Below, in pieces: positions 2,984 through 63,411 of a stretch of 64,000 nucleotides of DNA. The first letter of the stretch is position 1, and every line of letters starts with the position of its first letter. The DNA lies in contig JAKCPI010003083.1 of NCBI GenBank assembly GCA_023213315.1, positions 149,028 through 213,027 of the forward strand, read 5' to 3'. The translations under genes were made by a program, and so were the position numbers. The notes under the pieces are model-generated. The model saw nothing but the letters and a program-made list of their open reading frames with translations, did not search any database and had not been told where the DNA came from. This DNA is from Euborellia annulipes. Lineage: Eukaryota > Arthropoda > Insecta > Dermaptera > Anisolabididae.

Positions 2984-3164
2984 TACTTGACTATAAAAGC
3001 TACATTAAATCTAAATATATTTTTAGAATGATTGGTTTAATACCCCCCGGACCTTTTTTTTTGATGTGTCGTTATTTTACCGCATGAGAGCATTCGGCGG
3101 GAAATTCATATTTGAAATATAATAGGTAAATAAAAGAATAGCAGCTAAAATTATTTCATTTATT

Positions 3165-4002
3165 ATAATTTCGTGGCTGTATATAAAATTGTTCGTAATA
3201 GGAAGAGGTTAGCACCAAATAAAAAGAGCCTCTATTATTAAATAAACTCTTTAATCGGACGTTTCGGCATAGTTCTCTGCCATCATCAGCCTTCAAGCTA
3301 GAAGTCATCAAACATTACATAACATTTCATTATTATAACATGGCAATTACATTAATATTTACAGTATAAAAGTGTTACATATATTACTTACAGTGCATAA
3401 GTCTTAAATAGACATATATTGAACATTAATAATAGAGTTGTCTGGAGTAAATAATACAATTGATTGATATTACCAATGTATTAGTCAGTGAATATTGGAC
3501 AACGTTAAATACCATCAAGTGGCGGACAAGAGAGAAACGAGCTCAATGAATTAGATTTTTAAATAACGTCTTTATATATAATTAATTTTTCTTGAAATAA
3601 TTTAATTATATATAAAGACGTTATTTAAAAAATCTAATTCATTGAGCTCGTTTCTCTCTTGTCCGCCACTTGATGGTATTTAACGTTGTCCAATATTCAC
3701 TGACTAAATACATTGGTAATATCAATCAATTGTATTATTTACTCCAGACAACTCTATTATTAATGTTCAATATATGTCTATTTAAGACTTATGACTGTAA
3801 GTAATATATGTAACACTTTTATACTGTAAATATTAATGTAATTGCCATGTTATAATAATGAAATGTTATGTGAATGTTTGATGACTTCTAGCTTGGAAGG
3901 TGATGATGGCAGAGTGAACCTATGCGAAACGTCCGGATTAAAGAGTTTATTTAATAATAGAGGCTCTTTTTATTTGGCTGCTAACCTCTTCCTATTACGA
4001 AC
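3165..4002. mobile_element. Near-perfect ~820-bp palindrome with hammerhead-like core, inserted with 16-bp duplication
   Basis: Arms 3187-3585 and 3602-4006 are near-identical reverse complements separated by about 16 nt. AATTATTTCATTTATT occurs at both 3149-3164 and 4003-4018, so the insertion made a 16-bp target duplication, a length typical of target-primed retrotransposition. On the - strand, 3289 to 3258 carries CTGATGA, then GGCA-loop-TGCC, then GAAACGTC, a full hammerhead catalytic core with stem II. The matching + strand core in the right arm (near 3898-3938) has lost the first C and part of the stem. No protein is encoded. Confidence 0.75.
3258..3289 (-). ncRNA. Hammerhead-ribozyme-like core (best copy)
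   Basis: Read on the - strand: CTGATGA (3289-3283), T, stem II GGCA / TGCC with an 8-nt loop, then GAAACGTC. In hammerhead numbering this gives C3-U4-G5-A6-N7-G8-A9 and G12-A13-A14. The A15.1/C15.2 and G16.2/U16.1 pairs have no loop between them, and C17 is the cleavage base. A minimal stem III like this matches hammerheads described in Penelope-like elements, which are thought to act as dimers. Stem I pairing here is weak, so activity is uncertain. Confidence 0.55.
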
Positions 4003-4499
4003 AATTATTTCATTTATTTTCCCGCTAGGCTGACGTTCAGAGATCTTCAGAACTTGCTGAATCAGTGGCGTCATTTGTGATCAAGACCATCTTCAGAGCT
4101 TGCTAAAGATAGTCTTGATCAAGACCGAAACGTCAGCCTAGCGGGTCAATAAATGAAATAATTTTAGCTGCTATTCTTTTATTTACCTATTAACGATTAT
4201 CCAGCTATAAAATCCACATTTGTATCATATTTGAAAGTTTAAACCACTGTAGATTCCGAACAGGTAATCAGATCAGACTAAATGTGATGTCAATTTGTGC
4301 AGAAAGAAAACCTCTAATAGAATAAATAAAAAAATCTCGAGCAATTAATACTAAAATCAATTTTTTTTTCAAAAAACCTAATTTTTAGGCAAAGATTGCC
4401 CTTAATGGATAAAAGTCCGGCCACACTTGTCCTATCTTGTTACTATGAAAATGTATGAACATGTTTGTTAATGGGAACTAAGTAAAAAAAAACAAACAA

Positions 4500-4539
4500 T
4501 ACTTTCTCTGTATATATTCATATAGGTAAGAGAAAGTAA
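4500..4539 (+). repeat. Solo right-end hairpin of family A
   Basis: TACTTTCTCT...AGAGAAAGTA with an AT-rich core is identical in form to the 3' terminal hairpin of full family A copies, but nothing else of the element adjoins it. A 39-nt poly-A run follows at about 4553-4591. Confidence 0.6.
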
Positions 4540-4552
4540 AAATAGTTTGGAG

Positions 4553-4593
<41 letters not shown>

Positions 4594-4737
4594 CCTCTTC
4601 TTTTTTTTTAAAAATAGTTTGAAGTCAGGCAAAAGACGTTGTCACGTTAAAAGGCCACCGGGTGTGTAGTAGACTCAGCCAACACTAAATATTTTTATAA
4701 TTAGTCTGGGTAGGTATGCTTATTTCTTTGGTAGGAT

Positions 4738-4828
4738 AGTAACCATATGGCCTCCGGGAGTCGAACAAGGGATCTCTAACCTCTCCGGGAGACACGAGTG
4801 ACTCGGCCCACCAGCAAAAAAATAAGTT
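4738..4828 (-). repeat. tRNA-derived SINE head (relic)
   Basis: On the - strand a tRNA-like block ends with TTGTTCGACTCCCGG (B-box like) after GGGCCGAGTCACTCG. Acceptor-like ends GGCC / GGCC are present, but the cloverleaf is imperfect, so I call a SINE or tRNA relic rather than a gene. Confidence 0.4.
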
Positions 4829-5227
4829 TATAAGGTAAAGCCAGATGTCTCCAGAAATTAATTTCACTTCTACAGGATTAGAGAAAATGACTTCTCTTTG
4901 CTCCATACTATGAATGAATTTTCTGTAATGTTGTTAATGTTTTATACCCATAAACTAAACACAATATATAATTTATTCAGGAAAAAAGGTGTATTTAATA
5001 TTTTTATAGCTGTTGCGTGGTGATAATCAGATAATGATATACTGATAAGTATGTAGTAGATTTTAATTTTTATTTGCTTTTTTTTGTATCGAGAAAATTA
5101 AAATTTTATTACTACAGTAGATTATATTTTGATTTTATAAGAATGAGTTTGAAAAAGAAGTGAAATTTGTGGAATTTAAATTCAAAAAAAGTTCAAAATA
5201 AATAATAAAAGTGTAGTTAAAAATGGT

Positions 5228-5442
5228 AATCGCCCTCCTGGCCGAGAGGTTAGATAAAGTGATAATAATGTTAATAAGCCACGGGGTGTGGGTTCGGATC
5301 CCAGTCCGATGAATATTTATTTAAATAAATTTTAACCCTCAGATTGAGAAGCAGGGAATCTTAAATCAGTAATCAATCTCTGTACTTTATTGTAAAAATT
5401 TAAAGTCTTTACGGCCTCAGATGCCGTAGACTTAAAAAAACA
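5228..5442 (+). mobile_element. tRNA-derived SINE, head type 2
   Basis: An A-box-like GGCCGAGAGGTTAG and a B box GGGTTCGGATCCC are spaced as in a tRNA with a long variable arm (Leu/Ser-like). An AT-rich body containing TTATTTAAATAAAT follows. The 3' end has the stem-loop AAGTCT...TACGGC / GCCGTA..GACTT and then a poly-A tract. This terminal stem-loop is shared with SINEs that have quite different heads elsewhere in the window. It ends about 70 nt before the cadherin acceptor. Confidence 0.7.
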
Positions 5443-5511
5443 AATTAGAGAATAAAATTAATCATTAAAATCACTTAAATTATAAATATTAATTGTTGCA
5501 CTTTATTGCAG

Positions 5512-5719
5512 GTGTACGTGTCAGTTGCAAATGAAAACGACAACGCACCGCTGACACAATTACCGGTGTATTATCCACACGTACCAGAAAACTCACCAGC
5601 AGGAATTTTCGTCGTTCAGTTGCACGCCGAAGACCACGATCTGGATCCACGACAACGGCTTACATATAGAATTACAGCAGGAAATCCCGAGAGCTTCTTC
5701 GCCATCGAGCCTGAAACAG
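5512..5719 (+). CDS. Fat-like cadherin, internal exon (cadherin-repeat junction)
   Basis: Exon of a giant Fat-type protocadherin, a single-pass adhesion and planar-polarity receptor (family knowledge). The acceptor is ...TTTATTGCAG at 5510-5511 and the donor is CAG/GTAAGC at 5719/5720. The 208 nt give 69 codons plus one base (phase 0 in, phase 1 out). Residues 7-13 read NENDNAP, the calcium-binding linker closing one cadherin repeat. The next repeat begins PVYYPHVPENSPAG, with the PEN motif at 25-27. AEDHDLD at 39-45 supplies the D-x-D motif, followed by LTYRITAGNPESFFAIEPET. The NAPL...VYY..VPENSP and TYRI.(A/S)GNP..FFAI signature is, from memory, closest to FAT1-3/kugelei-type cadherins rather than Dachsous or classical cadherins. 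GC and codon use are clearly higher than in the flanks. The open frame continues 50 nt past the donor into intron, so the splice motif and the match of the next exon set the end. Confidence 0.93.
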
Positions 5720-5981
5720 GTAAGCCAAAAAAAATTTTTAGGGGTGTCAAAAGTAGCAAGTTCTTATGAAATAGGGGTTGCAAAAGGTAATAGTCATCAA
5801 ACAGCTAGAGAATACAAATCTAAACGTATTTTGTTGATGATTGTTTTTTTTTTCAGATAATATATATATTATAAAATCTATTTTTTATTATTTCTCTCTC
5901 CTCCTTGAGAGGGGAGAGATGATGTGTGAGTGTAGATTAGTTTTGAGGTGAATCAAAAGTGGTTTTGGATTGTTGTTGTGT

Positions 5982-21090: not shown

Positions 21091-21500
21091 TTTAGATCGC
21101 AAACTTTATGTTACCACGCCTCCCTTAAAAATATTTAATCTTATGACGCCGCCCTCCTCCATTTTATAAAATAATACAAAATAAAAATTTTTAATGCCAA
21201 AAAATATAATTTTATATTAAAGCGGAGTCAAAAAAAAAAAATTCCTAGTTATTGAATGAAAATTTTGAATAAAAAATTACAATTATAATTTTGAAATTAA
21301 AATTTTCTTTTATTCTCGCCTCCGGCTCTTAAGAAGGCCGAAACGTCACAATAATTTTGGCTGCATATGACTAGGAATTTTTTTTTACTCCGCGAGAATA
21401 AATAAAAAAATCTTTTTTTTTTTTTATATATTCTTATTTATATTAAAACTAGCAATTGGTCCTGGTGGCCAATATTCGCCCCTCCCCTTAGGCTAGTTAT
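21091..21500 (+). mobile_element. Family E hAT-like MITE, interrupted by a foldback
   Basis: GCAAACTTTATGTTACCACG..CTCCCTTAAAAATATTTAAT at the left and GGTGGCCAATATTCGC..CTCCCCTTAGGCTAGT at the right match the family E copy at 22285-22718. The centre is replaced by the foldback at 21222-21393. Confidence 0.6.
21222..21393. mobile_element. Foldback with decayed hammerhead-like core
   Basis: Outer inverted repeat GCGGAGTCAAAAAAAAAA..TTCCTAGT / ACTAGGAATTTTT..ACTCCGC. At 21330-21347 the + strand reads TAAGAAGGCCGAAACGTC, which has the GAAACGTC half of the core but a degraded CTGANGA side and almost no stem II. Confidence 0.5.
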
Positions 21501-30484: not shown

Positions 30485-31161
30485 AAAAAATCTGGTGTGA
30501 CTGGCGCACAGCACACAACTTTCTCTTACCTTCGGTAATCGAAAGTTGTGTACTGTGCTTGTCACACCAGATTTTTTGTGTCGACATGTATTTAGTTTCC
30601 GACAGTAGGGTACAATTGAATTCAAGATGTAAAATTTATAAGTATGGGAAAATATTTATATTTTGATACCATGGCAACCATTTCTCCTATCTTTTCTATG
30701 GAGTACAAGAGTAAAGTGGTCTTCAGAAGATTTCAATCACAAAATGAGAATATACATTTTATAGAGAATCTAAAAAATAATTGATTTTTGAATTTTAAAA
30801 AAAATCGTTGGAGCAAATTTAGAGAAATTAGAAAAAAACTGAAAAAGTGCATCAGTAAAGTACTAGTACTCTTTGGTCCATTTTGTTCAAAAGCTTCGTG
30901 TCACGTCCCATGGGGGTGCCTAACTTAAATATAAAATTTCAACTTCCTAGCTCTTTTCGTTCTTGAGATATTTTGTTCACAGACACACAGACAGACACAC
31001 ACACAGACACACAGACAGACCATGTCGCGAAAACCACTTTTTTGGATTCAGGGGACCTCAAAACGTGAAGATCCATCAAAATCTCGACATCGAATTTTTG
31101 ACATGAATCCAATACTTTCTCTCTCTATATATTAACATATATATAGAGGTACGAGAAAGTA
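30485..31161 (+). mobile_element. Family A element, reference full-length copy
   Basis: Best complete + copy, about 677 bp. The left hairpin occupies 30485-30578, containing ACTTTCTCTTACCT in its upper arm. Then come TTTAGTTTCCGACAG, the ATACCATGGCAACCATTTC block, AGTACTAGTACTC and the CACAGACAGAC microsatellite (30979-31020). AAAACGTGAAGATCC and TTTTTGACATGAATCC precede a 48-nt AT-rich terminal hairpin ending AGGTACGAGAAAGTA. The 14-bp sequence in the left hairpin recurs inverted (one mismatch) at the right end. No protein is encoded. Helentron-derived HINE elements combine subterminal inverted repeats, an internal microsatellite and a 3' hairpin (family knowledge); assignment is inferred. 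Confidence 0.85.
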
Positions 31162-31214
31162 AAAATGATTTTTGAGCAAAGAAAATTGATTGTTGTCTAT
31201 TGAAAAAAAAAGGT

Positions 31215-34620: not shown

Positions 34621-34848
34621 TCTAAATACTTAATTAAATAATAAGACCTTCTATTTATAAAAAAAAAACCCTTATATAAGGAATAACATATATTAAAATT
34701 ATTGAAAAAAAAAAATTATTGAGGAGGTAGCTAAGCCGAGGGGTAAAGAAATTAAAACTTTAAACTTTTTATTTTAAATCTTGAATTAACGGATTTCTTA
34801 TAGATATTTTATGTTTCCAATAAACTTAATATAACTATATAATAATGA

Positions 34849-35034
34849 AATATTTATTAATTTATATATCGAAAAAATAAGGGTGCCGCCGGGAGTCGAA
34901 CCACGGATCCTCCGATTTGTACTCAGCAGAGTGCTGGTCCAGTGGTAGGGCACTCTGAGTACAAATCGGAAGATCCCTGGTTCGACTCCCGGCGGCACAC
35001 CCTTATTTTTTCGGATATATTAATTAATAAATAT
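34849..35034. repeat. Palindrome made of two inverted tRNA-like sequences
   Basis: Arms of ~90 nt meet near 34945. On the + strand the right arm holds GGTCCAGTGGTAGGGCAC (A-box-like) and CTGGTTCGACTCCCGGC (B box) with acceptor-like GTGCTG / CGGCAC; the left arm is the reverse complement of its 3' two thirds. AT-rich AAAAAATAAGGGTG sequences extend the palindrome on both sides. Confidence 0.7.
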
Positions 35035-35152
35035 TTAATTGTATAAATTTCGCGGGTGATATACGTGATATATATAATATATTAAATATTATATATAATT
35101 TCTTATTTATTATATAATAATGTTGTAAAAATTGATGAATCAGGTGATAATT

Positions 35153-35320
35153 GCAGGGGGCAATGAAACAAAGAATTATTTTTTCAAATCAACGTATCGG
35201 TCACAAATCGTGACCTAATGTAACAATGATAATTTTCAAGTTCTGAAGAGAGTCACGATTTGTGACCAAAATGTCAACATGTGAAAATAATTTTTTTATT
35301 GACAGGCCACCATTGCCTGC
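35153..35320. mobile_element. Foldback MITE
   Basis: GGTCACAAATCGTGAC / GTCACGATTTGTGACC is an exact 16-bp inner inverted repeat. GCAGG..GCAATG / CATTGCCTGC and AATTATTTTTTCA / TGAAAATAATT extend the arms to the ends. It sits 210 bp before the second cadherin exon. Confidence 0.6.
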
Positions 35321-37495: not shown

Positions 37496-37603
37496 AATAT
37501 TGAAAAACACTAGGTTTTTGTTTTTTATTTTAAAGTAATACACTTTCGACATTAGAGTTTTCTGATGATCTTGAAACAAATCACCTAGTGTTTTTCAATA
37601 TCA
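37496..37603. mobile_element. Small foldback with hammerhead-like remnants
   Basis: ATATTGAAAAACACTAGGT and ACCTAGTGTTTTTCAATAT are exact inverted repeats. CTGATGA (37562-37568) is followed after only four bases by GAAAC (37573-37577), so stem II is missing. Confidence 0.5.
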
Positions 37604-38021: not shown

Positions 38022-38718
38022 TACTTTCTCTTACCTATGTATATATGTAATATATATATAGAGAGAAAGTATTGGATTCATGTCAAAAATTCGATGTCGA
38101 GATTTTGATGGATCTTCACGTTTTGAGGTCCCCTGAATCCAAAAAAGTGGTTTTCGCGACATGGTCTGTCTGTGTGTGGGTGGGTGGGTGGGTGGGTGGG
38201 TGGGTGTGTGTGTGTGTGTGTGTTCAATTTTAAGCATGAAGGAATTGAGCTACGAGGTTGAAATTTTATATTTTAGTTAAACACCCCCGGGACCGGAAAA
38301 ATAAGCTTTTAATCAAAATCGGCCAAAGAGTACTAGTACTTTACTGATGTACTTTTTCAGTTTTTTCGATTTTCTCAAAATTTGCTCCAACGATTTTTTT
38401 TAAAATTCAAAAATCAATTATTTTTTAGATGCTCTTTCAAATGTATATTCTCATTTTGCGATTGAAATCTTCTGAAGACCACTTTACTCTTGTATTTCAT
38501 AGGGAAGATAGGAGAAATGGTTGCCATGGTAACAAAATATAAATATTTTCCCATACTTATAAATTTTACATCTGAATTCATATGTTCCGTACTGTCATGT
38601 CGGGAACTAAATATATGTCGACACAAAAAATCTGGTGTGACAAGCACAGAACACAACTTTCGATTACCGAAGGTAAGAGAAAGTTGTGTGCTGTGCGCCA
38701 GTCACACCAGATTTTTTT
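38022..38718 (-). mobile_element. Family A element, full-length
   Basis: Right-end hairpin at 38022-38068, a GTGTGTGGGTGGGTGG tract at 38168-38222, and the left hairpin 38626-38718 with AGGTAAGAGAAAGT in its arm. Open frames through the microsatellite (PTHPPTH-type) are artefacts. Confidence 0.85.
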
Positions 38719-38769
38719 AATTGAAGTGAAGTAATAAAGATACGCAAACATCTCTCGGATCGAAATTTG

Positions 38770-39035: not shown

Positions 39036-40192
39036 GCTGTGTGGGGGGTTTCATTTCATAGCTGAATTCAAATTTATTTTTTTCATTTTTTCGTGGATTG
39101 TATTTCACAGAGGTTGGAAGATTAAAAACCAATGTCTCTTAGTGCTTTTTCATTAAGAAAATTCTATTTACTCAATGAATGGGTGTAAAGCCAGTGAGAA
39201 ACAATTCCCCGGCAGATAAATGGAGATGTTTGAACCTTACTCCATTTAATTTATATATCCAGAGTCCAACCAACCAAGTTCTAATTTTATTTCAGCTATA
39301 AAACTGTTTTTGAAAATTAAAATATCAAAAGTGTTTATCATTTCCAACTTGTTTAACCCTATCTGGAGTAATATCTTTAAATTAAGTTATTAAATTAGTA
39401 AACCTTTTTATCGATCTTTTTTTTTTCATTTAAGTTCTTAATTTAATAATCCTATAGTTTGTTTTTTATCTACAATCTTGTTTGTTTAGTTTTTTTTTTT
39501 TTTTTTTTTTTTAAACCAACAACAAATTCTATAAAATTATATTTCTATCTATAAATTCTTATCTTCTGCTCCTTCATGAAACGAGTTTCTATTAGATATA
39601 AAACAAGAAGAAAAGCGAATCACTTTTTTTTCCATCATCGGAAAAAATTTTATATTCTTAAAAAAAAAATACAGATTTTTTGTTAATAATGATATAAAAT
39701 TTTTTTTTTTTATTAAATTGATACATAGTGATTTATGATTAAATATTAAAGAATATATATATAAAACTTTTTTGTTTTAATATTTTTTAATATTTACAAA
39801 AAAGTTTTTTAATCTATTGCATAAAGGTTTTAAAACAACAACAAATAAGTATATATAACTTTTCTTTTTTACTATGAAGAATGATAATCTTAGTTCTTTT
39901 TATATGAACTGTTCTTTAAATTATATTTTAAATATAAGGAATATTAAAAAAAGGTTAATAAAAATGTCTCCTAGTTTTAAATTGCAATTGCAATATGATG
40001 ATAAAGTAGACTATATAAAAATGATATAAAATTCTTTACGAACACCATTGTTTTTAAAGTTATAATCATTTAATATGATTTAATAATATTTTTATTGTTG
40101 TTTTAATAAGAATTGTGAAGTTTTATGTAGTAGATGGATGGGGTTATATACTGGTCATCTTATAACATTTTAACTAAATTCAAGGCATGGCG

Positions 40193-42940: not shown

Positions 42941-42984
42941 CCTCAAATTCCGCCGACATATTAGAATTCAAGATGTAATTTTTT

Positions 42985-44220
42985 TACTTTCTCGTACCTC
43001 TATATATATGTTAATATATAGAGAGAGAAAGTATTGGTTTCATGTCAAAAATTCGATGTCGAGATTTTGATGGATCTTCACGTTTTGAGGTCCCCTGAAT
43101 CCAAAAAAGTGGTTTTCGCGACATGGTCTGTCTGTGTGTGGGTGGGTGGGTGGGTGGGTGGGTGGGTGGGTGGGTGGGTGTGTGGGTGTGTGTGTCTGTG
43201 TTCAATTTTAAGCATGAAGGAATTGAGCTACGAGGTTGAAATTCTATATTTAACTTAAACACCCCCGGGACCGGAAAAATAAGCTTTTAATCAAAATCGG
43301 CCAAAGATTACTAGTACTTTACTGATGTACTTTTTCAGTTTTTTTCGATTTTCTCAAAATTTGCTCCAACGATTTTTTTTAAAATTCAAAAATCAATTAT
43401 TTTTTAGATGCTCTTTAAAATGTATATTCTCATTTTGCGATTGAAATCTTCTGAAGACCACTTTACTCTTGTATTTCATAGGGAAGATAGGAGAAATGGT
43501 TGCCATGGTAACAAAATATAAATATTTTCCCATACTTATAAATTTTACATCTGAATTCAAATGTTCCGTACTGTCGGGAACTAAATATATGTGACACAAA
43601 AAATCTGGTGTGACAAGCACAGAACACAACTTTCGATTACCGAAGGTAAGAGAAAGTTGTGTGCTGTGCGCCAGTCACACCAGATTTTTTTTTTTTTTTT
43701 TAAAGGGGAAACTCAACTGCGGTAATTATTATGGGAAAATATATATATATTGTTATCATGGCATCCATTTTTCTTCTATGAAGTACAAGAGTAAAGTGGT
43801 CTTCAGAAGATTTCAATAACAAATTGAGAATATACATTTTAAAGAGTATCTAAAAAATAATTGATTTATGAATTTAAAAAAAAATCATTGTAGCGAATTT
43901 TGAGAAAAAAAAAAAAAAAACTGAAAAAGTACATCAGTAAAGTACTAGTATTCTTTGACCGATTTAGATTAAAAGCTTATTTTCACGGTTCAGGAGGGTA
44001 CAAAACATAAATATAAAATTTCAACCTCCTAGCTTAATTCCTTCATGCTTAAAATTGAACACACACCCACAGACAGACCATGTGGCGAAAACCACTTTTT
44101 TGGACTCAGGGGACCTCAAAACGTATATATCCATCAAAATCTCGACATTGAATTTTTGACATGAATCCAATACGGTACTTTCTCTATATATTAAAATATT
44201 TATAGAGGTAAGAGAAAGTA
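42985..44220. mobile_element. Head-to-head family A dimer
   Basis: A full - copy (42985-43700) with terminal hairpin, (GTGGGTGG)n tract (43136-43198) and left hairpin (43603-43700). It is followed after about 22 nt by a + copy (43723-44220) that lacks its own left hairpin but has body, microsatellite and terminal hairpin ending AGAGAAAGTA. The pair forms a ~1.2-kb inverted repeat with a single left hairpin at its centre. Confidence 0.82.
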
Positions 44221-45862
44221 AAAAATAAATTGTGTTTTCTTAAAGTATCCTCTTCAAAGTATTTTTGTAGCGGTTTATTAATTTATTTTTGGTATATTCA
44301 AAGTATTATCTCTTAAACAATATCGATTTTCTTAAATTCGCCAAATTATTTACCATCTTGCTCTTCTCTTTAAGTTCGGTATGCTCTTTTACCTCTTTTT
44401 TTAATACTTTTTAGTTGGGCGCTTTATTATCGACCTGTCTGTATGTCTGTACCTCTTTCCTTTAGGACCGCGCCCCTCTTCAAGCATTTACAATACCTCC
44501 CTCTCATTCTATCTAGCACACAAAACTAGCTTGTTTCCAATTCTCTCTTTTCTTTTTCTAATGCATTTGTGGAATGTTTTAATCTTGAAAATGCACTCCG
44601 TTGACAATGATACTCAAAATAAATATACCATCTATTTTAAAGAGATTTATTTTATCTATGGAAATTAAAGAATAGCCAACTAATAATAGATCTTGCTTTG
44701 TATTCTCAGGAAACTAGTTTATAAATCATTCTATCAGATTGATCTTGACATGACCTAAGGAAACACAACTGACCTTTGGTTGTAGCCATCTATCGGCATT
44801 TTATCGAGTTATATTTTATTCAGTGCACTTCCTTCCTATTAACTCATCATTTCTAAACGCAATTCAGATACTGTTCTTTATATAAAGGCTAATTTATTTT
44901 TATTTATATCAAAGGATTTCTACGACAGGTTTTAGAATCAATGGCTTTTACAAATGATATCATAAACAAGACTGGATGTAGTGAAAAATAAATTTAGCAA
45001 CCTCCATTTTCGAATTTAAAATATTTAAAGTGTAAAATTATCAAGGTAAATAGAAACAAATTATGAATTTTTTAGATGAAAGCCCTTTTCCATTACCGTA
45101 TTTAAAAATGCAAGAGAAAGATTATTCTTAAATTATTTTTTATAAAAAATTTTTGTAAATTGCTTCTTTGATATATAAATTTAACAAAATCTTTAAAAAT
45201 TTTCAACTAATTTTGCGTATTGGAAATTCTAATAAATTGATTAACTCGAAATATTTCTGAAAGTTTTTTTTAATTACTAATTAAAAAGTAATCATTAAGC
45301 CTATAATAATAATAATAATAGTTAAAGTTTAATCAATTAGCCCAAGTCATGCATTTACATATTTGAAACTTGAAGGGTGTGTTTTAGTAAAAACAAACAG
45401 AAATCCCTCCAGGTGAAACTTAATAGATTCAAATAAAATTTAATGAAAATAAATTTTTCTCAGAATATGAAATTATCCCATTGGGTGAATTCGCCTCACA
45501 AATGAGTCTCGCTGGAGAAGGCTGGATTTAGAAAATATTTTAATTTTCAAGATATGAAGAAATGTTCAAAAACATTCTAAGCAAGACTATTAAAGTATAC
45601 TTTTTTTTTTTTTAATTAAATTTTTTAATATCTCAGAAAAGTTATTTTTCTAGATAGATTAAAATTAATCTCAAAAAAAGTTACTTCTTAATCCTGATTG
45701 ATATTTGTTTGTTCTAAAGAGTAGACTATTAATAACGAAATAAAAAGTTTAAAACAATTACTTTGACCCTCACTGAGTAAAAAGTATTTTTAAAGAGAGA
45801 GATTAGATATTTATTTATCATATTATTTAGGAAAATTTTATGAATTAAATAATAAATGGACT

Positions 45863-46690: not shown

Positions 46691-47503
46691 ATTACTTAAT
46701 TTATGATTATATAATAGTACTAGACTACATTAAAACCTGAAAATTTATAAATAATTTTTATATCTCGGTGATCCCAAAGTATGTTAGCCTCTATTCTATT
46801 TACTGGTAAATGAAACTTCAGTATTGAGATGATTCTAGGTATGGAGTGTCAATCAAAGAAAGTGAATCGAATTCACATTTATTTTCTTTCATTCCTTAAT
46901 TGGTTGTAAAAACATTCCAATTTTAACAAAAAAAAAAAAAAAAAAAAAAAAGGGAAAGAAAAAAAAATCAAAGAAATAAATGAGCAGGCTCTGTTTGAGA
47001 CACATCTTTAATTAAAGCTATAAAAGGGAGGGTAAATAGATCCTGTACAAAGTTGTTGGTGGGAAATAAAGAAGCCAAAAAAAGACAAAATGAGAGGGTG
47101 AGAGAAAGAGCGCGAGAAGAGAGTAGTGGGTTGCTGCATCACCAAAGAAATAAGGGTTTGTTTCGTTTCTGAGAATGCAAAGGGCAACTGGTGCAATCCC
47201 CAGGAGATAAGTTAATCGTAACTGCTTCGTTGAGCCAATGCCTTGCCAAATGTATAAATTAACTTGTATTCAAACAACAACAACAAGCGGGACGAATACA
47301 AATAAATATATTTATTCACCAATGTCTCAACCGCCCCTCAATTGAATTGTATGTATGTATAGCTAATACAAGTTTATTTGTTTTATTGAATTGCTTTAAA
47401 TCTTGATTTGTGAATAAAGAAAAAAAAAAATTCGTGACACAATACTTAAAAGACGAAAAACATTTAACATTTTTGGATCTCGTTGAAACATATGTGCAGT
47501 AAA

Positions 47504-47633
47504 AATATACAAATAAAAACGCTCGGTAATTTGTTATTGATTATAAATTAATATTTATTAGTAATTCGGACACTGTGTCATCCTCAGAAGTGATTTATTA
47601 GTATAATTAGCCGAGAGTTTTTATTTGTATATT
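47504..47633. mobile_element. Foldback with hammerhead-like core
   Basis: AATATACAAATAAAAACGCT..CGG / CCGAGAGTTTTTATTTGTATATT inverted ends. On the - strand: CTGAGGA (47587-47581), then a perfect GACAC-A-GTGTC stem, then CGAATTAC, i.e. an intact first half and stem II with GAAA mutated to GAAT. Confidence 0.6.
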
Positions 47634-47769
47634 TAAATTATATATTATTATTAGTATTAAAATTGCAGACAACCATAGCTAGGGGGTTCAAAGTTCCAAA
47701 AATAAATAAATAAAAAAAAAAGATAGTTTCAATTTTAAACGCCTTTAGAAATTATAAAATAAATATAGG

Positions 47770-48059: not shown

Positions 48060-48150
48060 AAACAGAATTGTGTTTTCGCTTTAATGTGGTTTATTAGTAA
48101 AAATTACGTTTCGGCCACTCTGTGGCCTTCTTCATGTACGATTCAGTTAA
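48060..48150 (-). mobile_element. Hammerhead-like core fragment
   Basis: On the - strand: ATGAAGA (48135-48129), A, perfect stem II GGCCAC-AGA-GTGGCC, then GAAACGTA. Only the first core base (C to A) and the cleavage triplet (GTA) deviate. Foldback arms are not evident, so it may be a one-armed relic. Confidence 0.55.
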
Positions 48151-48198: not shown

Positions 48199-48460
48199 GA
48201 CCCTGTTATGCATTAGTGTGTGGCTTAAATAAGAATGTCTGGGACCCCAATAGATATATTAATAACATTATTATTATTACAATTGTTTGCAATAAGGCGC
48301 ACCAGCTATACGCGCTATAAATAACATACGAGTATCGTTAACAGTCTTAAATGACCTAAGTTGCCGAAAAGAGTGTGTGTATGTGAGTGTGAGTGGGGGA
48401 AAAAAGTGTTAAAAAAAAACAACTTAAAAATCGAGTTAGCGCCTGGCGCGTAGGCAGCCC
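48199..48460 (+). mobile_element. GGACYCTGTTA MITE split by a 5'-truncated SINE
   Basis: GGACCCTGTTATGCATTAGTG (48199) matches the MITE at 45863. 48224-48420 is the 3' half of a type 1 SINE (GGCTTAAATAAGAATG.CTGGGACCCC, AAGTTGCCGAAAAGAG tail, poly-A) with an internal insertion at about 48265-48325. After it the MITE resumes (AAAAATCGAGTTAGCGCCTGGCGC). Confidence 0.6.
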
Positions 48461-50479: not shown

Positions 50480-50690
50480 TCAAGTCAACGTTTCGAAAAA
50501 ACGTATGAGTATACAGCTAGAAAAATATTTTTTTCTTCATTCAAAATGATTGTAAAATCGCAAAAATTACATTTTTACGATCATTTGATGTTATAGTTAA
50601 CCGTCCAGTTATTTCATTAACTGTATGATGGTCACATATATAACCGAAACTTCAGCTTGAAGTGCCATAAATAAATGAAATATACTTAAC
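50480..50690. mobile_element. Probable decayed ribozyme-type element
   Basis: TCAACGTTTCG at 50508 and, on the opposite side, CTGTATGATGGTCACATATATAACCGAAAC (50621-50650, shown only in its key parts: TATGATGG, AACCGAAAC). The two halves are inverted relative to each other. The catalytic words are broken. Confidence 0.35.
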
Positions 50691-50902
50691 TGCAACTGTT
50701 TTTTTCATTTTAAAATAAATGCAGTTCAAAATTGCCACCACCACCTCTAAAAATAAATACAATCCATGACACAATATAGGTTTATACATAATTTTATTTG
50801 CTTACATGAACACTTTATCGGCGAAAAGATTTATTTCAATTGAAATAAATAACGACGGGCTTTAGATACTTAAACAAATTAAAAAAAAAAAAAATTAACA
50901 CT

Positions 50903-52682: not shown

Positions 52683-53347
52683 TACTTTCTCTTACCTATG
52701 TATATATGTAATATATATATAGAGAGAAAGTATTGGATTCATGTCAAAAATTCGATGTCGAGATTTTGATGGATCTTCACGTTTTGAGGTCCCCTGAATC
52801 CAAAAAAGTGGTTTTCGCGACATGGTCTGTCTGTGTGTGTGTCTGTGTGTCTGTGAACAAAATATCTCAAGAACGAAAAGAGCTAGGAAGTTGAAATTTT
52901 ATATTTAAGTTAGGCACCCCCATGGGACGTGACACGAAGCTTTTGAACAAAATCGACCAAAAAGTACTAGCACTTTACTGATTCACTTTTTCAGTTTTTT
53001 TCGATTTTCTCAAAATTTGCTCCAACGATTTTTTTAAAATTCAAAAATCAATTATTTTTTAGATTCTCTATAAAATGTATATTCTCATTTTGTGATTGAA
53101 ATCTTCTGAAGACCACTTTACTCTTGTACTCCATAGAAAAGATAGGAGAAATGGTTGCCATGGTATCAAAATATAAATATTTTCCCATACTTATAAATTT
53201 TACATCTTGAATTCAATTGTACCCTACTGTCGGAAACTAAATACATATCGACACAAAAATCTGGTGTGACAAGCACAGAACACAACTTTCGATTACCGAA
53301 GGTAAGAGAAAGTTGTGTGCTGTGCGCCAGTCACACCAGATTTTTTA
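52683..53347 (-). mobile_element. Family A element, full-length
   Basis: 665 bp and uninterrupted: terminal hairpin, CTGTCTGTGTGTGTGTCTGTG tract, body and left hairpin 53256-53347. ACTTTCTCTTACCT (52684-52697) recurs as AGGTAAGAGAAAGT (53300-53313), an exact 14-bp subterminal inverted repeat. Very similar to 30485-31161. Confidence 0.88.
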
Positions 53348-53502
53348 TATTATTTAATTTTATTTTTTATTTGCAACATATTTCAATAATAAATTTCATA
53401 GATGTAACTCTTTTAGAGGAGAAGGTAGGTAATGTGGATGCATTTTTGTAATTGACGGAGCCAACTTTAGCTTCTATAGTTTTGGAGTGAAATTTGTAGG
53501 GT

Positions 53503-54022
53503 AGTTGATGAGTAGCAGGATGAAGAAAGAAAAGCAGCTAGTATTTATTTCATTATATTTAATAAACATTAGGTTAACGTTTAGGTCTCGGTCGAGACCA
53601 TCTTCGGAGTTACAACATAGCAAAGATGAGGATAAATTTTAAAATTACAATTTTCTTACAACACTTTAGTGACTAACAATACAAAATATAAAAGATATGA
53701 AAAAATATATATACCTTATGAGCTGTCAATATGAGATAAATATCATAGACTCAATTATTTAATTCATAACCAATAAGTTTTCTCAAATTGACAGCCCATA
53801 AGGTCTATATATATTTTTTCATATCTTTTATACTGTATTTTGTATTGTTAGTCATGAATTAATAATGTGTTGTAAGTAAATTGTAATTTTAAAATTCATC
53901 CTTGCTATGTTGTAGCTCCGAAGATGGTTTCGACCGAGACCGAAACGTTAGCCTACTGAGTATTAAATAAATGAAATAAATACTAGGTGCTTTTCTTTCT
54001 TCATCCTGCTATTCATTAACAA
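53503..54022. mobile_element. 520-bp foldback with hammerhead-like cores in both arms
   Basis: Arms from AGCAGGATGAAGAAAGAAAA / TTTTCTTTCTTCATCCTGCT to the centre near 53760. + strand: CCGAAGA (53918-53924), stem GGTTTC..GAGACC, GAAACGTTA (53942-53950), with stem I GTAGCT / AGCCTAC. - strand: the same with stem GGTCTC-GACC-GAGACC, but GAAA changed to TAAA. Only one core position (T4 to C) is off on the + strand. Confidence 0.68.
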
Positions 54023-56329
54023 CTTTTATTCAGCTATAAATCTTTAAAGAATTCAGATGTTCAAAATTATTTATTTAACCAATTGGTATAAATAAATATG
54101 CCTAGATAGCAGTTAACATAATCTCACACAATTGTTGTGACATTATTCCGATTTTTGCTTATATAAAAAAAGCACACATTTTTAAAAGAAAATTAAATGT
54201 AATGTAAAAACTAACCATAAATTTGAGTCTGAGAGCCACCTCTGATCCTTTCCCTGGTCGGAGGTCATCTAAAGTCATCCAAGTGAGAATAGAGACCTAT
54301 AAATCGAAAGAAAAGCAACCGATTAGAATTAAACGGTTTGGCCAATTCTTTTAAGAAAAGAGGAAGATTCTTTATTTTTTTTGGTGCAAGTCAGGATAAA
54401 AATAAAATAAGAGAGAGGAGTTAATGCGAGATATATGTGTTTTAAAAAAAAAAAAAAGGGGGGGGGGGAAAAAAAGGAAAATTACTTTTTTATGAAGATG
54501 GGCCATCCTGGATGTAAGTTTCCTCGGAAGATCCTCCTTTCAGGCATCGCTTTAGAAAACTAACTAAACAAAAAATACTCAAACGATTAAATAAAACCCG
54601 AATTCAAAAAATTAATTCATTTTTGATGAATTAATTAAATGAAAACGAGTTGGCTACAAGGGTGGAAAGGATGAAAGGAAAAGTTTTTTTTTATTATTTA
54701 ATTATTAATACAATAATTTACAATTTTACATAAAATAATAAAATACAATAAATTCACAATCTTCATGCTGGTATCTTCTTATGAAGAAGTCGTTAACACA
54801 CTTCTGATGATCTTGTTTGAAGATCTTCTAAGTCTTCTTAGAGAAACATCATAGGTCTTCATAGGCAAAAAGAATGTGCTTCATACACCAATCTTTTTAT
54901 TCTTCGCATTAAATGCATTTAAAAAAATCACAAAAATAATAAATAGAGTATTTCAAAGAGTGTGCAAAATTGCAAAAAAAAAAAAAAGATTCATTAAGTG
55001 TGATCACTCTCCCAAATTCATATAAATCATCCAGTTTAGAGTGAAGCGAAGCTAAAGGACCTATGCTAAAATATTAATTTGCGCCCCGGGAGAGTGATCC
55101 CCATCCCCCCTCTAATAATTCCTATTCTAAGAGAAAGATGTGTACATTAAATTTTGGTCGAAAAAATTAATAATAAATTTTGTCCGAATAGAAGAAACTT
55201 GTTGTATTTTCCTTGGAGTTATCATCTTAACACAAAGATCCGAACTGAACTGAGTACTGATGAATAAATCCCTGCCTAAGACTATTAGTCATTAATCGAA
55301 GTGTTGTAATTACTCTCCACAAGAGAATCTTTATATTCACTTGCTGTTCGAAATCAATGTGATCAGAATCAAGAAACCAACGAAACATGACAAGTTTCAG
55401 TTTTTGAGTTTAAGTAGTATATGAAAAAAAAAAAAAAAAAACTCCAAGAAATCGTCTCTTTCCTCCAGTCTCTAGTGTCTATTTTTTGTACCTAACGGGG
55501 AGATAAAGAGATAGCGCATGCATTTTCTAGCGATGGAGTTCCGAGAGACATCTTGTTTACAAAAAATATTTACAGAAGAATATCACTTAAAATTATAAAA
55601 TGTTTCAAAAGCATAATAAAAATGTCTCGATGAATAGAGTTTGAGTATATTTCAACAAAAATTTAATTTATTCAGACAAATAATGAATTGTTGAAAATTT
55701 TGAAAATTCTTATAAAGAACAGATCAAAGAGATAAGCTAATAGTGAATTTGTAAAATGAATTTACTTGAAAAATAGAGAAAAATTGGAAAATATCAAATC
55801 TCGTACTGTATAATTAATCGAAAAATGTAATATTAATTTTGAATATTAATTTACTTATGAAATATGAAAAATTTAAAGTGAATATTATTATTATTATTTT
55901 TTTTTTATTATGCTTTTTGTATAGTGCGAGCGATAAGAACCAGAGTGACCTATTTAATAGACTTTTCTTCTATTTTTTGAGAAAAACAGGTTACTGGATA
56001 TTTTCAAAATCTTTATTTTGTGTGAATCAGTCCTAAATTTCTATTTAGTTAATATTCTTATTATTTAGAAATCTAAAGATTAAAAATAATGTGATTTTTT
56101 TTTTAATTTTTATAATTTAAATTAATGATAAAATTTTCAAAATTGTGGCCCATTCTGGTTTTCATCACTTCAAAATAATATTAGTCTTATATATTAGGGC
56201 GAAGGCGGATCCAAGGGAGTTGATATCAAAATTTCCCTTCAAATTTAAACGTTTAAAAATGTGTAATTAAAGCTTTCAATATAGTATTCATTAAATATGT
56301 AATAAATGATTTTTATGGAATCCGCCAAG

Positions 56330-59616: not shown

Positions 59617-59680
59617 TATATTGTACCATCTCTTTAAATAATTTTTTTGAAGAAGATATATAGCTGAATGTTGTTATTCA

Positions 59681-60080
59681 AATAGGTAGAAAAAAATGAG
59701 CAAAGCTGCTAGTTATATTTTAATTTATTATCAAACCAGGGCCGACGTTTCGGTCGCATATGGGGCCATCTTCAGGGCCAGGTTAATGTCTGATAATATA
59801 TATAATCCTCTCCAAGTTATATTGGACATACACAATTATAAGTGGTTCAATCATGTTCATGTCCAAAAAAATTAAAATTTTTGGAAAAAATAATTAAAAT
59901 TTTTGGACATGAATATGATTGAACCACTTACAATTGTGTATGTCCAATATAACTTGGAGAGGATTATATATATATATCAGACATTAATCTGGCCCTGAAG
60001 ATGGCCCATATGCGATCGAAACGTCGGCCCTGGTTTGATAATAAATTGAAATATAACTAGCTACTTTTTTTCTGCCTATT
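59681..60080. mobile_element. 400-bp foldback with intact-looking hammerhead core words
   Basis: Arms CTAGTTATATTT..ATTTATTATCAAACCAGG / CCTGGTTTGATAATAAAT..ATATAACTAG. + strand: GGCC, CTGAAGA (59995-60001), TGGCCCATATGCGATC, GAAACGTC (60018-60025), GGCC; the two GGCC stretches give stem I. - strand: the same order at 59775 to 59744. All catalytic bases are consensus in both arms, but stem II pairs poorly. Confidence 0.68.
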
Positions 60081-60171
60081 TAAATATTTATAATTTCGAA
60101 ATGTATTACGGTATTAAATTTTTGATGCTAGACATGTTTTTAAACTATTAGGTCTAATAGTTATTTAAATA

Positions 60172-60216: not shown

Positions 60217-60891
60217 ATTACTTATTATTTGAGAAATTAATAAATTAATTGAATATTAACAATTTTAATATTCCAATATGTCAAATAATAATTCAAAATA
60301 TAGAATATATAAAGGTTAGGCCACTCCCTTTTCATATAGTGCTTGTATGTATGGTATGGTATTTTCACACACCTTCCTTAATTCATCGTTACCGCTGTCA
60401 CTCTCATTAATGAATTAGTCTCGGGAGGGGTACAGGTTTTGGCAGGTGTTTGTTATGCATGTGTTGGCAATGAGATTTTGCACTTGTATCTGTGTAATAA
60501 GAGCGAGTGGGGTCGGCGACCCTATTGACTTTGTTCTGATCTATGATGATCACTCAATTAATTACTGTCCTTTACAAATAACCCGTGGGGTTAGAATGGA
60601 TCTTAATGGAAAGAGGTCACAATTTATTTATCGTTTTGATAATAATTAACGATGCTAATAATTAATTTATTTAGGTACATACTCCCAGTTTTATTATGAA
60701 TTTAGAGATTTATGAAGTTATTTTTACGTTCTCTTACTTCCAACCTTGAGGGAGGGGGGTTCAAATGCCCCCTCCCCAAATGACGTCCTTGTGCGAGGGC
60801 TACAATTTATAAGGTGAAGAGTAAGATACATATAATAATCCACTAAAAATATTTTTTTCGCCCATCTATCAGCATGTCGCGTTACATGTCA

Positions 60892-60951
60892 TGACGTCAG
60901 AAGCCGTGACGGCACAAGCCGAGACCACACAAGTCGTGACGTCACCAACGA
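60892..60951 (+). repeat. Four-unit 15-bp tandem repeat with TGACGTCA words
   Basis: Units TGACGTCAGAAGCCG, TGACGGCACAAGCCG, AGACCACACAAGTCG and TGACGTCACCAACGA in register. Unit 1 contains the CRE-type palindrome TGACGTCA, and unit 4 has TGACGTCAC. Confidence 0.7.
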
Positions 60952-61503
60952 CTCGCACCAGTTTTTTTTTTTTATATACAGTATATATATATTTAAATAC
61001 AGAATTTGGAGAAAATTAATTCTTTTTTTTTTAATGGATAAAAATAAGAATCTATATAAAATTGGGCCTCATACAGCCCGCAGGCCGCGGGATAGGCATG
61101 ACTTTCATCAATATGAAAAAGTTATAGTTTCATATCTCGTTTTCTAGACCACTCTATTTTAAGGACAAAACCGATTAATTATTTGACTATTTGTCAAGTT
61201 TTTTTTGCAGCGAAAGTTCTGTGATTTGTTTTTGTTTACTAGTTTAATACATTAATTAAACAGACAGATATACTTACAGAATTAAGACTTTTTTTTAATC
61301 ATAAAATAATATAAAACTTAAAAAAAAAAAAAATGAAATAAAAGTTTTTGACTGATCAAAGATTTTAAAGATTTTTATTATTTTTTAATTTCTTGATTAG
61401 GGAGAAATTTACCCTTCCACATATTAGTATATTTTACCCAGTCGATAAATAAATTATTACAAGCCTTTAATTAATTATCATATAAATTTTTTTCACTCTA
61501 AAT

Positions 61504-61945
61504 CAGTGTTCCCCAACCGGTGTGCCCCGGCACCCAAGGGCGCCGCGTGATTGGCTAAAGGGTACCGCGAGATATTGAGATAAACAAAAAAAAAAAAAAT
61601 TAAAGTTTACTATATTATGGAGTACTTATCATACTATAATATAAAGCGCTAGCTGCTGACTTCCTGTCCATGTGTGTATATGCCTATCAGGGCGCTGATT
61701 GGCCAGAATAAAAGGAAGTTGAGTCAAAGAGGGAAATTTAATACTAAGTCTGAGAGGGAAATTTAAAACTTTAAAATTATGCATTTGCTCGCTGAAGGCA
61801 AGTAAAGGGTTCCAGGGAGCGTTATATAATATTTTAATTAAACTTAATTTTTTTTTTTAATTCAAGGAAGGGTGTCCCTAGTCTGTAATGTTATTCCCAA
61901 CGCGCCTTTGGAGTGCTGTGAACTTCAAAAGGTTGGGAAACTCTG
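61504..61945. mobile_element. hAT-like MITE (CAGTGTTCCCCAACC)
   Basis: CAGTGTTCCCCAACCGG and GGTTGGGAAACTCTG ends with perfect 8-bp duplication CTCTAAAT at 61496-61503 and 61946-61953. 442 bp with no open frame of note. Confidence 0.9.
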
Positions 61946-62540
61946 CTCTAAATCAATCGCATTCTTTGTGTTTGAGTTGGAATAACAATTTTCAAAAATA
62001 TTTTGTTGGTTAAATCAAATTGATTTGAGTTTAGTTGAATTTATTTTATTTCCTAGAATGTTGATTAATTTCCTTTTGTTTCATAGGGATATTGAATCCC
62101 ACCCACATTTTCTTATTAGACTTTTCTAATATCCTGAGAAGGAATCAACAGGAATCAGTTGAACTTCCTGTATTGATTAATTAACCTTTAAATGAAATTC
62201 TATATTTAATCAATTTCAAATAAAAATCTCTCAATTTATGGGACCATCCAAAAAATAACGCGATTCAATGAAGAAGAAAAGTCTCAATTGAAATTAGGAC
62301 AAGTCAATAGTGCTGTACATATGTTCAGGACAGCAATTGGAATTGATAAAATGGCCAAATGGATTTAAACTCAAATGAAAATGTTTGTGCCCAAGTGGTT
62401 AGAAAGCCGAGTTAAAGGAGATCAATCTCGAGGAATTACTTGGGAAAATCGAAACACACTTGGGAATTTTATCGTCTCTTTACTTTATAAATAAACACTA
62501 TTAATTATTTCAAAAACTTCAATTTAATGTTACTTAAATT

Positions 62541-62988
62541 AAAAAATCTGGTGTGACTGGTCGCACCAGATTTTTTTGTGTCGAGATAAATTTAGTTTCC
62601 GCTGATATATTGGAATTCAAGATGTAAAATAAAATTTATAAACATGGGTAAATATTTATCTTTTGTTACCATGGAAACCATTTCTTCTATCTCTTCTATG
62701 AAATACAAGAGTGCTTCAGAAGATTTCAAGGGCAAAATGAGAATATATATTTTAAAAGGCATCTAAAAAAATAATTGATTTATGGATTTTTAAACAAAAT
62801 CGTTGGTGCGAATTTTGGGAAAATCGAAAAAGACTGAAAAAGTACATTAGTAAAGTACTAGTACTTTTTGACCGATTTTGTTGAAAAGCTTATTTTCACG
62901 CCCTAGATGGGTAGCTAACTTTCAGCCACCTAGCCCAATTCCTTCATGCTTTAAATTGAACACACAGCCACAGACAGACCATGTCGCC
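62541..62988 (+). mobile_element. Family A element, 3'-truncated, shortened left hairpin
   Basis: The left hairpin is reduced to AATCTGGTGTGACTGGTCGC..ACCAGATT, followed by the normal body and a CACACAGCCACAGACAGACC tract. It breaks off at CATGTCGCC. The end is lost. Confidence 0.75.
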
Positions 62989-63176
62989 TAATATATTTCG
63001 TTAATTAGAATAAAAGGCCTGGTAAGAGACAAACAACAACCACCAAGATGGTTGCTGTTAAGCAATGTAAAAGAACGGCGAAATCTCAGGTAGGTGGCCC
63101 AATGGAATCAGCGTGCGTAACGTCCACCGTTATTCAACAATAGAAAAGAAGATATTGTGAAAGCTGTAGTATACTG

Positions 63177-63411
63177 CCAAAGGTAAGAAAGAATAATTCA
63201 AAAAAGAATGCAATCAAATTTTATTTCATTTAATTTAATAAAAATTCTTAATCACTTGTTAAAGTTTCGATTCCGGTTTGAACCATCATAGCTCTGAAGA
63301 TGGTCCAAACCGGAACCAAAACGTTAGCAAGTGATTAAGAATTTTTATTAAATTAAATGAAATAAAATTTGACTGCATTCTTTTTTGAATTATTTTTTTC
63401 TTGCCTTTTGG
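63177..63411. mobile_element. 235-bp foldback with hammerhead-like core
   Basis: Arms CCAAAGG.AAGAAA / TTTCTTGCCTTTTGG and CAAATTTTATTTCATTTAAT / ATTAAATGAAATAAAATTTG. + strand: CTGAAGA (63294-63300), stem GGTCC..GGAACC, AAAACGTT (63318-63325, G12 changed to A), with GCT / AGC as stem I. - strand: GAAAC is present but CTGANGA is lost. Confidence 0.62.

What the first reader, a model, noticed from the sequence alone, without database searches (positions are those of the whole stretch)
3121..63411. A family of foldback elements with Penelope-type hammerhead ribozyme cores in opposite orientation
At least six foldbacks or fragments (3165-4002, 4019-4191, 47504-47633, 48060-48150, 53503-54022, 59681-60080, 63177-63411, weaker ones at 21222 and 37496) carry CTGANGA, a stem, then GAAACGT(C/T/A). 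Most have one core per strand. They have different arm sequences, so the ribozyme half is what they share. Penelope-like retroelements are known to contain such minimal-stem-III hammerheads and to occur with inverted ends. Short palindromic derivatives with mirror-image ribozymes and no reverse transcriptase would be a poorly described non-autonomous class.
Basis: partly seen in the sequence, partly recalled or inferred. Interest (0 to 1): 0.75.

Follow-up and report, generated by a model that had tools for sequence, protein, structure and literature searches.

The report
Inverted Penelope retrotransposon ends, ribozyme cores
Several short DNA palindromes in an animal genome look like end pieces of Penelope-type jumping genes inserted as head-to-head pairs, each half carrying a small ribozyme-like motif; the type of arrangement is already known, though very short versions lacking the enzyme gene are little described.

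Summary
Five foldbacks (A 3118-4224, interrupted by B 3165-4002; C 53501-54023; D 59681-60080; E 63179-63408) carry on each arm a hammerhead-like core of the Penelope-like element (PLE) type, whole or degenerate. Ten aligned cores covary: on three of five measures no shuffle of 500 reaches the observed value. A model of them also finds I (35235, in another foldback) and J (50615, single copy). Rfam's hammerhead models do not match. 48060 is a single copy; cores at 47504, 21222 and 37496 are at background. The copies share a downstream module ending like published PLE insertions: 3' ends outward, an extra tail on one side, target duplications in A (12 bp) and B (16 bp). Upstream arm sequence differs between B, C and D, the three with enough of it. 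Best reading: separate 5'-truncated PLE insertions made as inverted pseudo-LTR pairs, as described in Adineta vaga, probably by foldback synthesis, rather than one propagating non-autonomous family. No reverse transcriptase was found in the 10 of 61 frames scanned, and the source genome could not be searched, so autonomous partner and copy number are untested.

The parts
3118..4224 (.). Foldback A, split by B: left arm 3118-3164 plus 4019-4096, right arm 4101-4224 including a 32-nt tail (4193-4224); inner part of the left arm rearranged
   Evidence: Outer arms 45 of 45 identical; core on + at 4093-4146, degenerate core on - at 4020-4104 (E 0.0016)
3106..3117 (.). Target-site duplication of A, left copy (TCATATTTGAAA)
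   Evidence: 12-bp match to 4225-4236; 1.5% of 400 random flank pairs do as well
4225..4236 (.). Target-site duplication of A, right copy
3165..4002 (.). Foldback B inserted into A; arms 3187-3591 and 3594-4002, 2-nt apex, 22-nt tail at 3165-3186 on the left only
   Evidence: 398 matches, 0 substitutions, 13 small indels; apex
3149..3164 (.). Target-site duplication of B, left copy (AATTATTTCATTTATT)
   Evidence: 16-bp match to 4003-4018; 0 of 400 random flank pairs do as well
4003..4018 (.). Target-site duplication of B, right copy
3258..3289 (-). Hammerhead-like core of B, left arm
   Evidence: R1 53.2 bits
3886..3946 (+). Hammerhead-like core of B, right arm, disturbed by small indels
   Evidence: R1 31.3 bits
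4093..4146 (+). Hammerhead-like core of A, right arm
   Evidence: R1 52.1 bits
53501..54023 (.). Foldback C; arms 53501-53743 and 53773-54023, tail-like sequence beyond the right arm
   Evidence: 218 matches, 17 substitutions, 7 indels; palindrome
53564..53615 (-). Hammerhead-like core of C, left arm
   Evidence: R1 55.7 bits
53910..53961 (+). Hammerhead-like core of C, right arm
   Evidence: R1 59.9 bits
59681..60080 (.). Foldback D; arms 59681-59880 and 59888-60080, tail-like sequence beyond the left arm
   Evidence: 181 matches, 10 substitutions, 5 indels
59744..59775 (-). Hammerhead-like core of D, left arm, catalytic letters kept
   Evidence: R1 50.7 bits
59995..60025 (+). Hammerhead-like core of D, right arm, catalytic letters kept
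   Evidence: R1 45.3 bits
63179..63408 (.). Foldback E; arms meet near the 5' edge of the two cores, possible tail on the left
   Evidence: 101 matches, 8 substitutions, 1 indel; apex spacer 11 nt
63250..63297 (-). Hammerhead-like core of E, left arm, degenerate
   Evidence: R1 40.9 bits
63286..63336 (+). Hammerhead-like core of E, right arm
   Evidence: R1 54.5 bits
35170..35296 (.).
   Evidence: palindrome, 69%; R1 28.8 bits, E 5e-6, not in the model
48093..48146 (-). Single copy G with core, no second arm
   Evidence: R1 40.0 bits; no palindrome listed here
50615..50712 (+). Single copy J: core plus shared downstream module
   Evidence: R1 22.8 bits, E 4e-4, not in the model; aligns to the right arm of A from the core through AATAAATGAAATA
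47503..47634 (.). Foldback F; core not supported
   Evidence: arms 93% over 30 bp; no R1 hit with E up to 10

Best explanation
The foldbacks are short, 5'-truncated insertions of Penelope-like retroelements, made as head-to-head inverted pairs of the pseudo-LTR end. Shown by sequence: both arms run core -> shared AT-rich module -> outer end, so 3' ends point outward; one end runs on as a tail (32 nt in A, 22 nt in B; in C, D, E its end is not fixed, for lack of a duplication); A and B have target duplications; junctions are short in B-E (2, 29, 7, 11 nt). Inferred: a PLE reverse transcriptase/endonuclease supplied in trans copied a pseudo-LTR RNA at an AT-rich target, starting at one of the two published internal start sites; synthesis then folded back on a short palindrome and copied itself, and the hairpin was repaired into the target. 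The core rides along as part of the PLE 5' end. A transcript of a foldback would hold one sense core next to its complement, so the ribozyme is probably sequestered and the element a dead end, perhaps a source of hairpin RNA. The confidence below is for inverted truncated PLE insertions; for self-primed foldback synthesis as the route I would give 0.5.
For: Stems of ten cores: 77% of cells paired, 16 cells changed on both sides (shuffles 6.9), covariation score 0.411 (0.217), each reached by 0 of 500 shuffles; at most 46% paired when slid by 1-3 columns. Distance from the ATG-like codon to the cleavage site is 26 nt in 8 of 12 copies, 25, 25, 27, 28 in the rest (the pattern used allowed 22-28); the codon is ATG in 9 of 12. 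The Anolis PLE frame also starts at stem II with the cut 26 bp on (PMC11167929, part of main text). Arms of different elements match mainly from the core outward: A right/C right E 7e-12, C left/E right E 3e-7, C right/D left E 4e-6 over 110 nt including tail (I and J not in that call). Tail sides score in the top 5% of random pairs in 4 of 10 comparisons, other sides in 1 of 10. Duplications of 12 and 16 bp. Inverted pseudo-LTRs, junction palindromes, a tail on one inverted copy, 8-10 bp duplications and the self-priming proposal are printed for A. vaga. AT-rich target, cleavage of both strands and two start sites explaining the tail are printed for Anolis.
Against: No PLE with these ends is shown to exist: Pfam on 10 of 61 frames of 70 aa or more found no reverse transcriptase or GIY-YIG domain, and the source genome could not be searched. 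Rfam hammerhead models do not match. In one search two of five measures are unremarkable (pairs with a double change 121 of 500 shuffles; pair types 312 of 500). Folding five single cores is no better than shuffles (z -0.44 to -1.48). No exact duplication stood out for C, D, E, F. Junctions are not short everywhere: spacer 44 nt in F, 37 in I, 81 at 21222, 50 at 37496, and in A the arm alignment stops about 90 nt short of closing, with extra sequence in the left arm. The tail of E is weak.
Confidence: 0.77

Rival explanations
1. A propagating non-autonomous family of ribozyme foldbacks: each foldback is a copy of an older one, mobilised by a PLE.
For: Six foldbacks with a supported core in 64 kb share core and 3' module; B inserted as a finished unit with a 16-bp duplication.
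Against: B, C and D share no more than a weak 45-nt stretch upstream of the core (B-C, E 0.015), and their upstream arms recur nowhere else in the window beyond a 23-nt match of C. A, E and I are too short there to test. Apexes differ. One sense core per strand.
Confidence: 0.12
2. Same PLE origin, other route: two target-primed events, one from each cleaved target strand, joined in the middle.
For: The Anolis PLE protein cleaves and extends both strands (PMC11167929); one longer and one shorter end would fit two start sites; A has unequal inner arms.
Against: Independent truncation should give unequal arms and long spacers; spacers are 2, 29, 7 and 11 nt in B, C, D, E against arms of about 110-410 nt.
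Confidence: 0.3
3. Later inversion, or two solo copies inserted side by side in opposite orientation.
For: Single copies G and J exist in the window.
Against: In A and B one duplication flanks the whole pair; the two arms of B, C, D and E are each other's closest match.
Confidence: 0.03
4. DNA-transposon foldbacks (MITEs) that resemble a hammerhead by chance.
For: Inverted arms and no coding capacity seen.
Against: Covarying stems, duplications of different length, one-sided tail, no common outer terminal motif.
Confidence: 0.03
5. Assembly or sequencing artefact (hairpin chimeric reads), at least for B, whose arms differ only by small indels.
For: 398 matches, 0 substitutions, 13 indels in B.
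Against: The palindrome stops at the element's ends, with one-sided tail and 16-bp duplication; arms of C, D, E have 17, 10 and 8 substitutions. The indels alone are probably read errors (inference).
Confidence: 0.02

Closest known systems
Penelope elements with inverted pseudo-LTRs in Adineta vaga (PMC3846280; passages and Discussion seen)
   Same: Head-to-head inverted pseudo-LTRs, palindromes at the junction, tail on one inverted copy, duplications of variable length or none
   Different: Those described in the passages enclose or adjoin an ORF, an ORF remnant or captured DNA; here nothing but a short spacer lies between the arms and elements are about 230-840 bp
[quoted passage not shown] Lunse et al. 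2017; neither held, known here from passages of PMC6155905, PMC7229834, PMC7761336)
   Same: No helix III; dispersed copies in non-coding DNA and in pseudo-LTRs
   Different: Here on both arms of a palindrome; 7 of 10 aligned copies have broken catalytic letters
Poseidon PLE of Anolis (PMC11167929; parts 1-2 of 4 and passages seen)
   Same: Start codon at stem II, cut 26 nt on, two start sites explaining the tail, AT-rich targets
   Different: Tandem direct arrangement with an intact ORF
Metazoan non-LTR retrozymes (PMC7229834; passages seen)
   Same: Small non-coding elements with type I hammerheads
   Different: Retrozymes are direct tandem repeats with canonical hammerheads that give RNA circles; here the cores lie on opposite strands

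Membership tests
Penelope-like element pseudo-LTR | Minimal type I hammerhead (CUGANGA, stem II, GAAA-C-GUH, stem I) without helix III | tested here: met
   alignment and covariation; but 3 of 10 rows keep all catalytic letters, and Rfam does not match
Penelope-like element pseudo-LTR | ORF start codon at stem II, cleavage site 26 nt downstream | tested here: met
   26 nt in 8 of 12, ATG in 9 of 12 (pattern limited to 22-28); the frame ends after 10-12 codons in 9 of 12, so the ORF itself is not shown
Penelope-like element pseudo-LTR | Optional 30-40 nt tail at one of the inverted ends | tested here: met
   one side in A (32 nt) and B (22 nt); C and D by similarity, E weak; 4 of 10 tail pairs in the top 5% against 1 of 10 controls
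Penelope-like element pseudo-LTR | Variable-length target-site duplication | tested here: inconclusive
   12 bp in A, 16 bp in B; none stood out for C, D, E, F
Penelope-like element (autonomous) | Reverse transcriptase with GIY-YIG endonuclease | tested here: inconclusive
   10 of 61 frames scanned: none; genome not searchable
Retrozyme (non-LTR) | Direct tandem repeats with a hammerhead in each | tested here: not met
   in the foldbacks the cores lie on opposite strands
Rfam Hammerhead families | Match at the curated score | tested here: not met
MITE / DNA-transposon foldback | Constant duplication length and conserved terminal motif | tested here: not met
   duplications of 12 and 16 bp; no common outer end apart from the shared PLE-like module

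The most novel reading that the evidence does not exclude
The hammerhead sequence itself helps to make the foldback: its self-complementary stems act as a fold-back or annealing site for PLE cDNA, and one longer plus one shorter end is a fixed outcome of an ordered two-start process, so that PLE hammerheads would serve DNA joining as well as, or instead of, RNA cleavage. Hints: the palindrome centre of E (63293.5) and that of the inner palindrome of A (4099.5) lie 1-2 nt from an AGCT at the 5' edge of the core (read), and in A-E a tail is seen on one side only (weak for E). Against: A's arms are unequal overall, and B, C, D have their axis about 100-300 nt upstream of the core.
Probability: 0.12. 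Interest if true: 0.7.

Novelty: new member of a known kind. Interest (0 to 1): 0.36.

Why it matters
Why PLEs keep a poorly active hammerhead, and how they make inverted insertions, are both left open in the papers seen (PMC7761336 calls the role of these hammerheads a mystery; PMC3846280 leaves the template open). Short foldbacks without an enzyme gene, with readable axis, tail and duplication, and in B no substitution between arms, are clean records of single integration events. Collected genome-wide they could decide between self-priming and two-strand priming, and show whether the core sits at the axis more often than chance.

Tried and rejected
Rfam at gathering score and with E up to 10: no hammerhead; the miRNA-family hits on D, all below cut-off, reflect a long hairpin. 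Relatives by DNA pattern: CTGAAGATGGN{6,20}CGAAACGT gave 18 stretches in IMG/VR and 90 in GTDB genomes; my own rough estimate for 257 billion random bases is about 110 (no call), and the 25 of 108 printed look like unrelated prokaryotic or phage sequence, so I take them as chance. As a control, 3 of these 108 have both stems by a loose rule, against 2 of the 6 window cores that the same script listed: a modest contrast. R1 on 20 of the 108 reaches 27.4 bits at best, so I (28.8 bits) and J (22.8) would not convince in a set preselected for the motif; I rests also on its palindrome and J on its downstream module. Two further IMG/VR scans gave one match, in a 56% GC contig, and none. TTCAGCTATA alone is not enriched in the window (9 against 6.3 with one mismatch). 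AATAAATGAAATA at 1475 and TTCAGCTATA at 39291 show no core nearby. Single-sequence folding was uninformative. A swap test on six stems gave 8 of 720 permutations. The 5-of-7 overlap of core loci with palindromes (binomial 4e-4) is biased, since the loci were partly picked as foldbacks; of the two new loci, I is in a palindrome and J is not. Upstream of the core, C shares a 22-nt AT-rich stretch with single copy G (91%, E 4e-5) and 14 nt with J on the other strand; I do not read these as shared arms.
Full report
Setting. GC of the window is 27-32% in 4-kb steps, with one ORF of 130 aa or more by the ATG/GTG/TTG rule. A 96-aa frame at 5479-5766 + holds a cadherin domain (Pfam E 4e-11); its best solved relative is CELSR1 (E 4e-51). 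I take the window to be animal DNA in or near a flamingo-like gene. It is rich in dispersed repeats.

The foldbacks. A self-comparison lists local inverted pairs. Six score 200 bits or more: 3187-4006 (B), 53501-54023 (C), 59675-60086 (D), 63179-63408 (E), 34844-35040 (around a tRNA-like sequence) and 42980-44225 (another repeat). A is a further foldback whose outer arms (3120-3164 and 4148-4192, 45 of 45 identical) are separated by B. Matches/substitutions/indels between arms are B 398/0/13, C 218/17/7, D 181/10/5, E 101/8/1. If arms were identical at birth, B is very young and C and E are the most diverged; the indel-only pattern of B looks like read error.

The core. The strict pattern occurs three times against 0.04 expected. 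Ten cores, from five foldbacks and single copy G, were aligned and tested with a two-stem structure: 77% of cells paired, 16 cells changed on both sides (shuffles 6.9), covariation score 0.411 (0.217), none of 500 shuffles reaching these three. The number of pairs with a double change (6; 121 of 500 reach it) and of further pair types (12; 312 of 500) are unremarkable. Slid structures pair in at most 46% of cells. Arms of one element are related, so the ten rows are fewer independent cases. The stems have probably been under constraint in the source elements. Individual copies are often broken: by recalled rules, B left, D left and D right keep CUGANGA, GAAA and GUH. All lack helix III, which reviews describe as usual for PLE hammerheads (PMC6155905, PMC7761336; passages). 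The ten rows also have one letter (U, A in G) between CUGANGA and the GG of stem II, overlapping an ATG in most; this and the missing helix III may explain why Rfam's models do not match.

Model R1, built from these ten, was run on the window without filters. Besides the ten it gave three stretches with E up to 0.01: the left arm of A, locus I (35235-35286) and locus J (50615-50665). I lies inside a 127-bp palindrome listed before the model existed. J is a single copy that aligns with the right arm of A from the core through AATAAATGAAATA and on. The next score is 12.7 bits (E 0.44), so 37496 (E 0.71) and 21222 (E 1.6) are at background, and 47504 is not listed with E up to 10. Foldbacks with a supported core are A, B, C, D, E and I; single copies are G and J.

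What they share. Pairwise comparison of arms (A-H, without I and J) shows matches between different elements mainly from the core outward, through a module like AATAAATGAAATA...AGCTGC...ACCTATT. A separate comparison of the stretches upstream of the core finds between foldbacks B, C and D one same-strand match with E up to 0.1: B-C, 45 nt, 73%, E 0.015. Weak AT-rich matches link C with G (22 nt) and I with J (17 nt). A and E have almost no upstream part and I 55 nt, so independence is shown for three of six foldbacks. AATAAATGAAATA with one mismatch occurs 14 times against 2.4 expected; seven of the 14 lie in A, C, E, J or the duplication made by B. Beyond the symmetrical part one end runs on: right in A (32 nt to the duplication) and C, left in B (22 nt), D and E. 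The extensions of A, C and D share a TTCAGCTATA-like stretch; 4 of 10 pairs of tail sides, against 1 of 10 pairs of other sides, score in the top 5% of random pairs. This fits the PLE tail, printed as a 31-bp extension on one of the inverted pseudo-LTRs in A. vaga and explained in Anolis by two adjacent start sites of reverse transcription.

Insertion. A is flanked by TCATATTTGAAA (3106, 4225), B by AATTATTTCATTTATT (3149, 4003); 1.5% and 0% of 400 random flank pairs do as well. B therefore entered A as a finished foldback. No exact duplication stood out for C, D, E or F.

Mechanism. Three facts constrain it: 3' ends point outward; in B, C, D, E arms are nearly equal, with 2, 29, 7 and 11 nt between them; one end is longer by a tail. 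Foldback or self-primed synthesis at a short palindrome explains the first two directly and was proposed for PLEs on the same grounds. Priming from both target strands, which the Anolis protein can do in vitro, explains the third but not the equal arms. Exceptions: A's left arm holds extra sequence and its arm alignment leaves about 90 nt open; spacers are 37 nt in I, 44 in F, 81 at 21222 and 50 at 37496, old or doubtful copies. The palindrome centres of E and of A's inner palindrome lie 1-2 nt from an AGCT at the core's 5' edge (sequence); two cases are a hint only. Transcripts in either direction would hold an antisense arm followed by a sense arm with one core, so I expect a long hairpin, little cleavage and no circle (inference).

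Known or new. The parts are known: PLE hammerheads, inverted pseudo-LTRs, junction palindromes, tails. Searches of the held open papers listed none whose title, abstract start or passages seen describe short inverted pairs without an enzyme gene; most listed papers were not opened, and the primary hammerhead papers of 2014 and 2017 and a third PLE paper are not held. I file the elements as truncated members of a known kind.

Limits. The source genome could not be searched, so copy number, autonomous partner and taxon remain open. The Pfam scan covered 10 of 61 frames.

Noticed in passing
34844-35040: A 197-bp foldback (86%) around a tRNA-like sequence; ARAGORN calls tRNA-Cys (aca) at 34929-35002 +. 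It lies next to foldback I.
   Followed up: partly
5479-5766 +: Cadherin-domain frame closest to CELSR1 among solved chains; the window probably lies in or near a flamingo-like gene.
   Followed up: partly
3187-4002: Arms of B differ by 13 small indels and no substitution, which suggests read errors in the assembly at a long palindrome.
   Followed up: partly
30573-31165, 38052-38722, 42981-43552, 52713-53259: Another dispersed repeat family with copies in both orientations, up to 100% complementary over 231 bp, plus a 1.2-kb inverted pair at 42980-44225.
   Followed up: no
48216-48400: The stretch upstream of single copy G matches at least ten other places in the window at about 80-92%, so G sits beside or in another dispersed repeat.
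   Followed up: no
59741-60028: Element D gives low E-values, below the curated cut-offs, with many Rfam miRNA precursor families; foldback insertions can pass for miRNA genes.
   Followed up: no
cores of A-E and J: Reading from the ATG of the core gives similar short peptides in several copies (MAPYATETSA, MVSTETETLA, MVTYITETSA) that stop after 10-12 codons in 9 of 12 copies.
   Followed up: no
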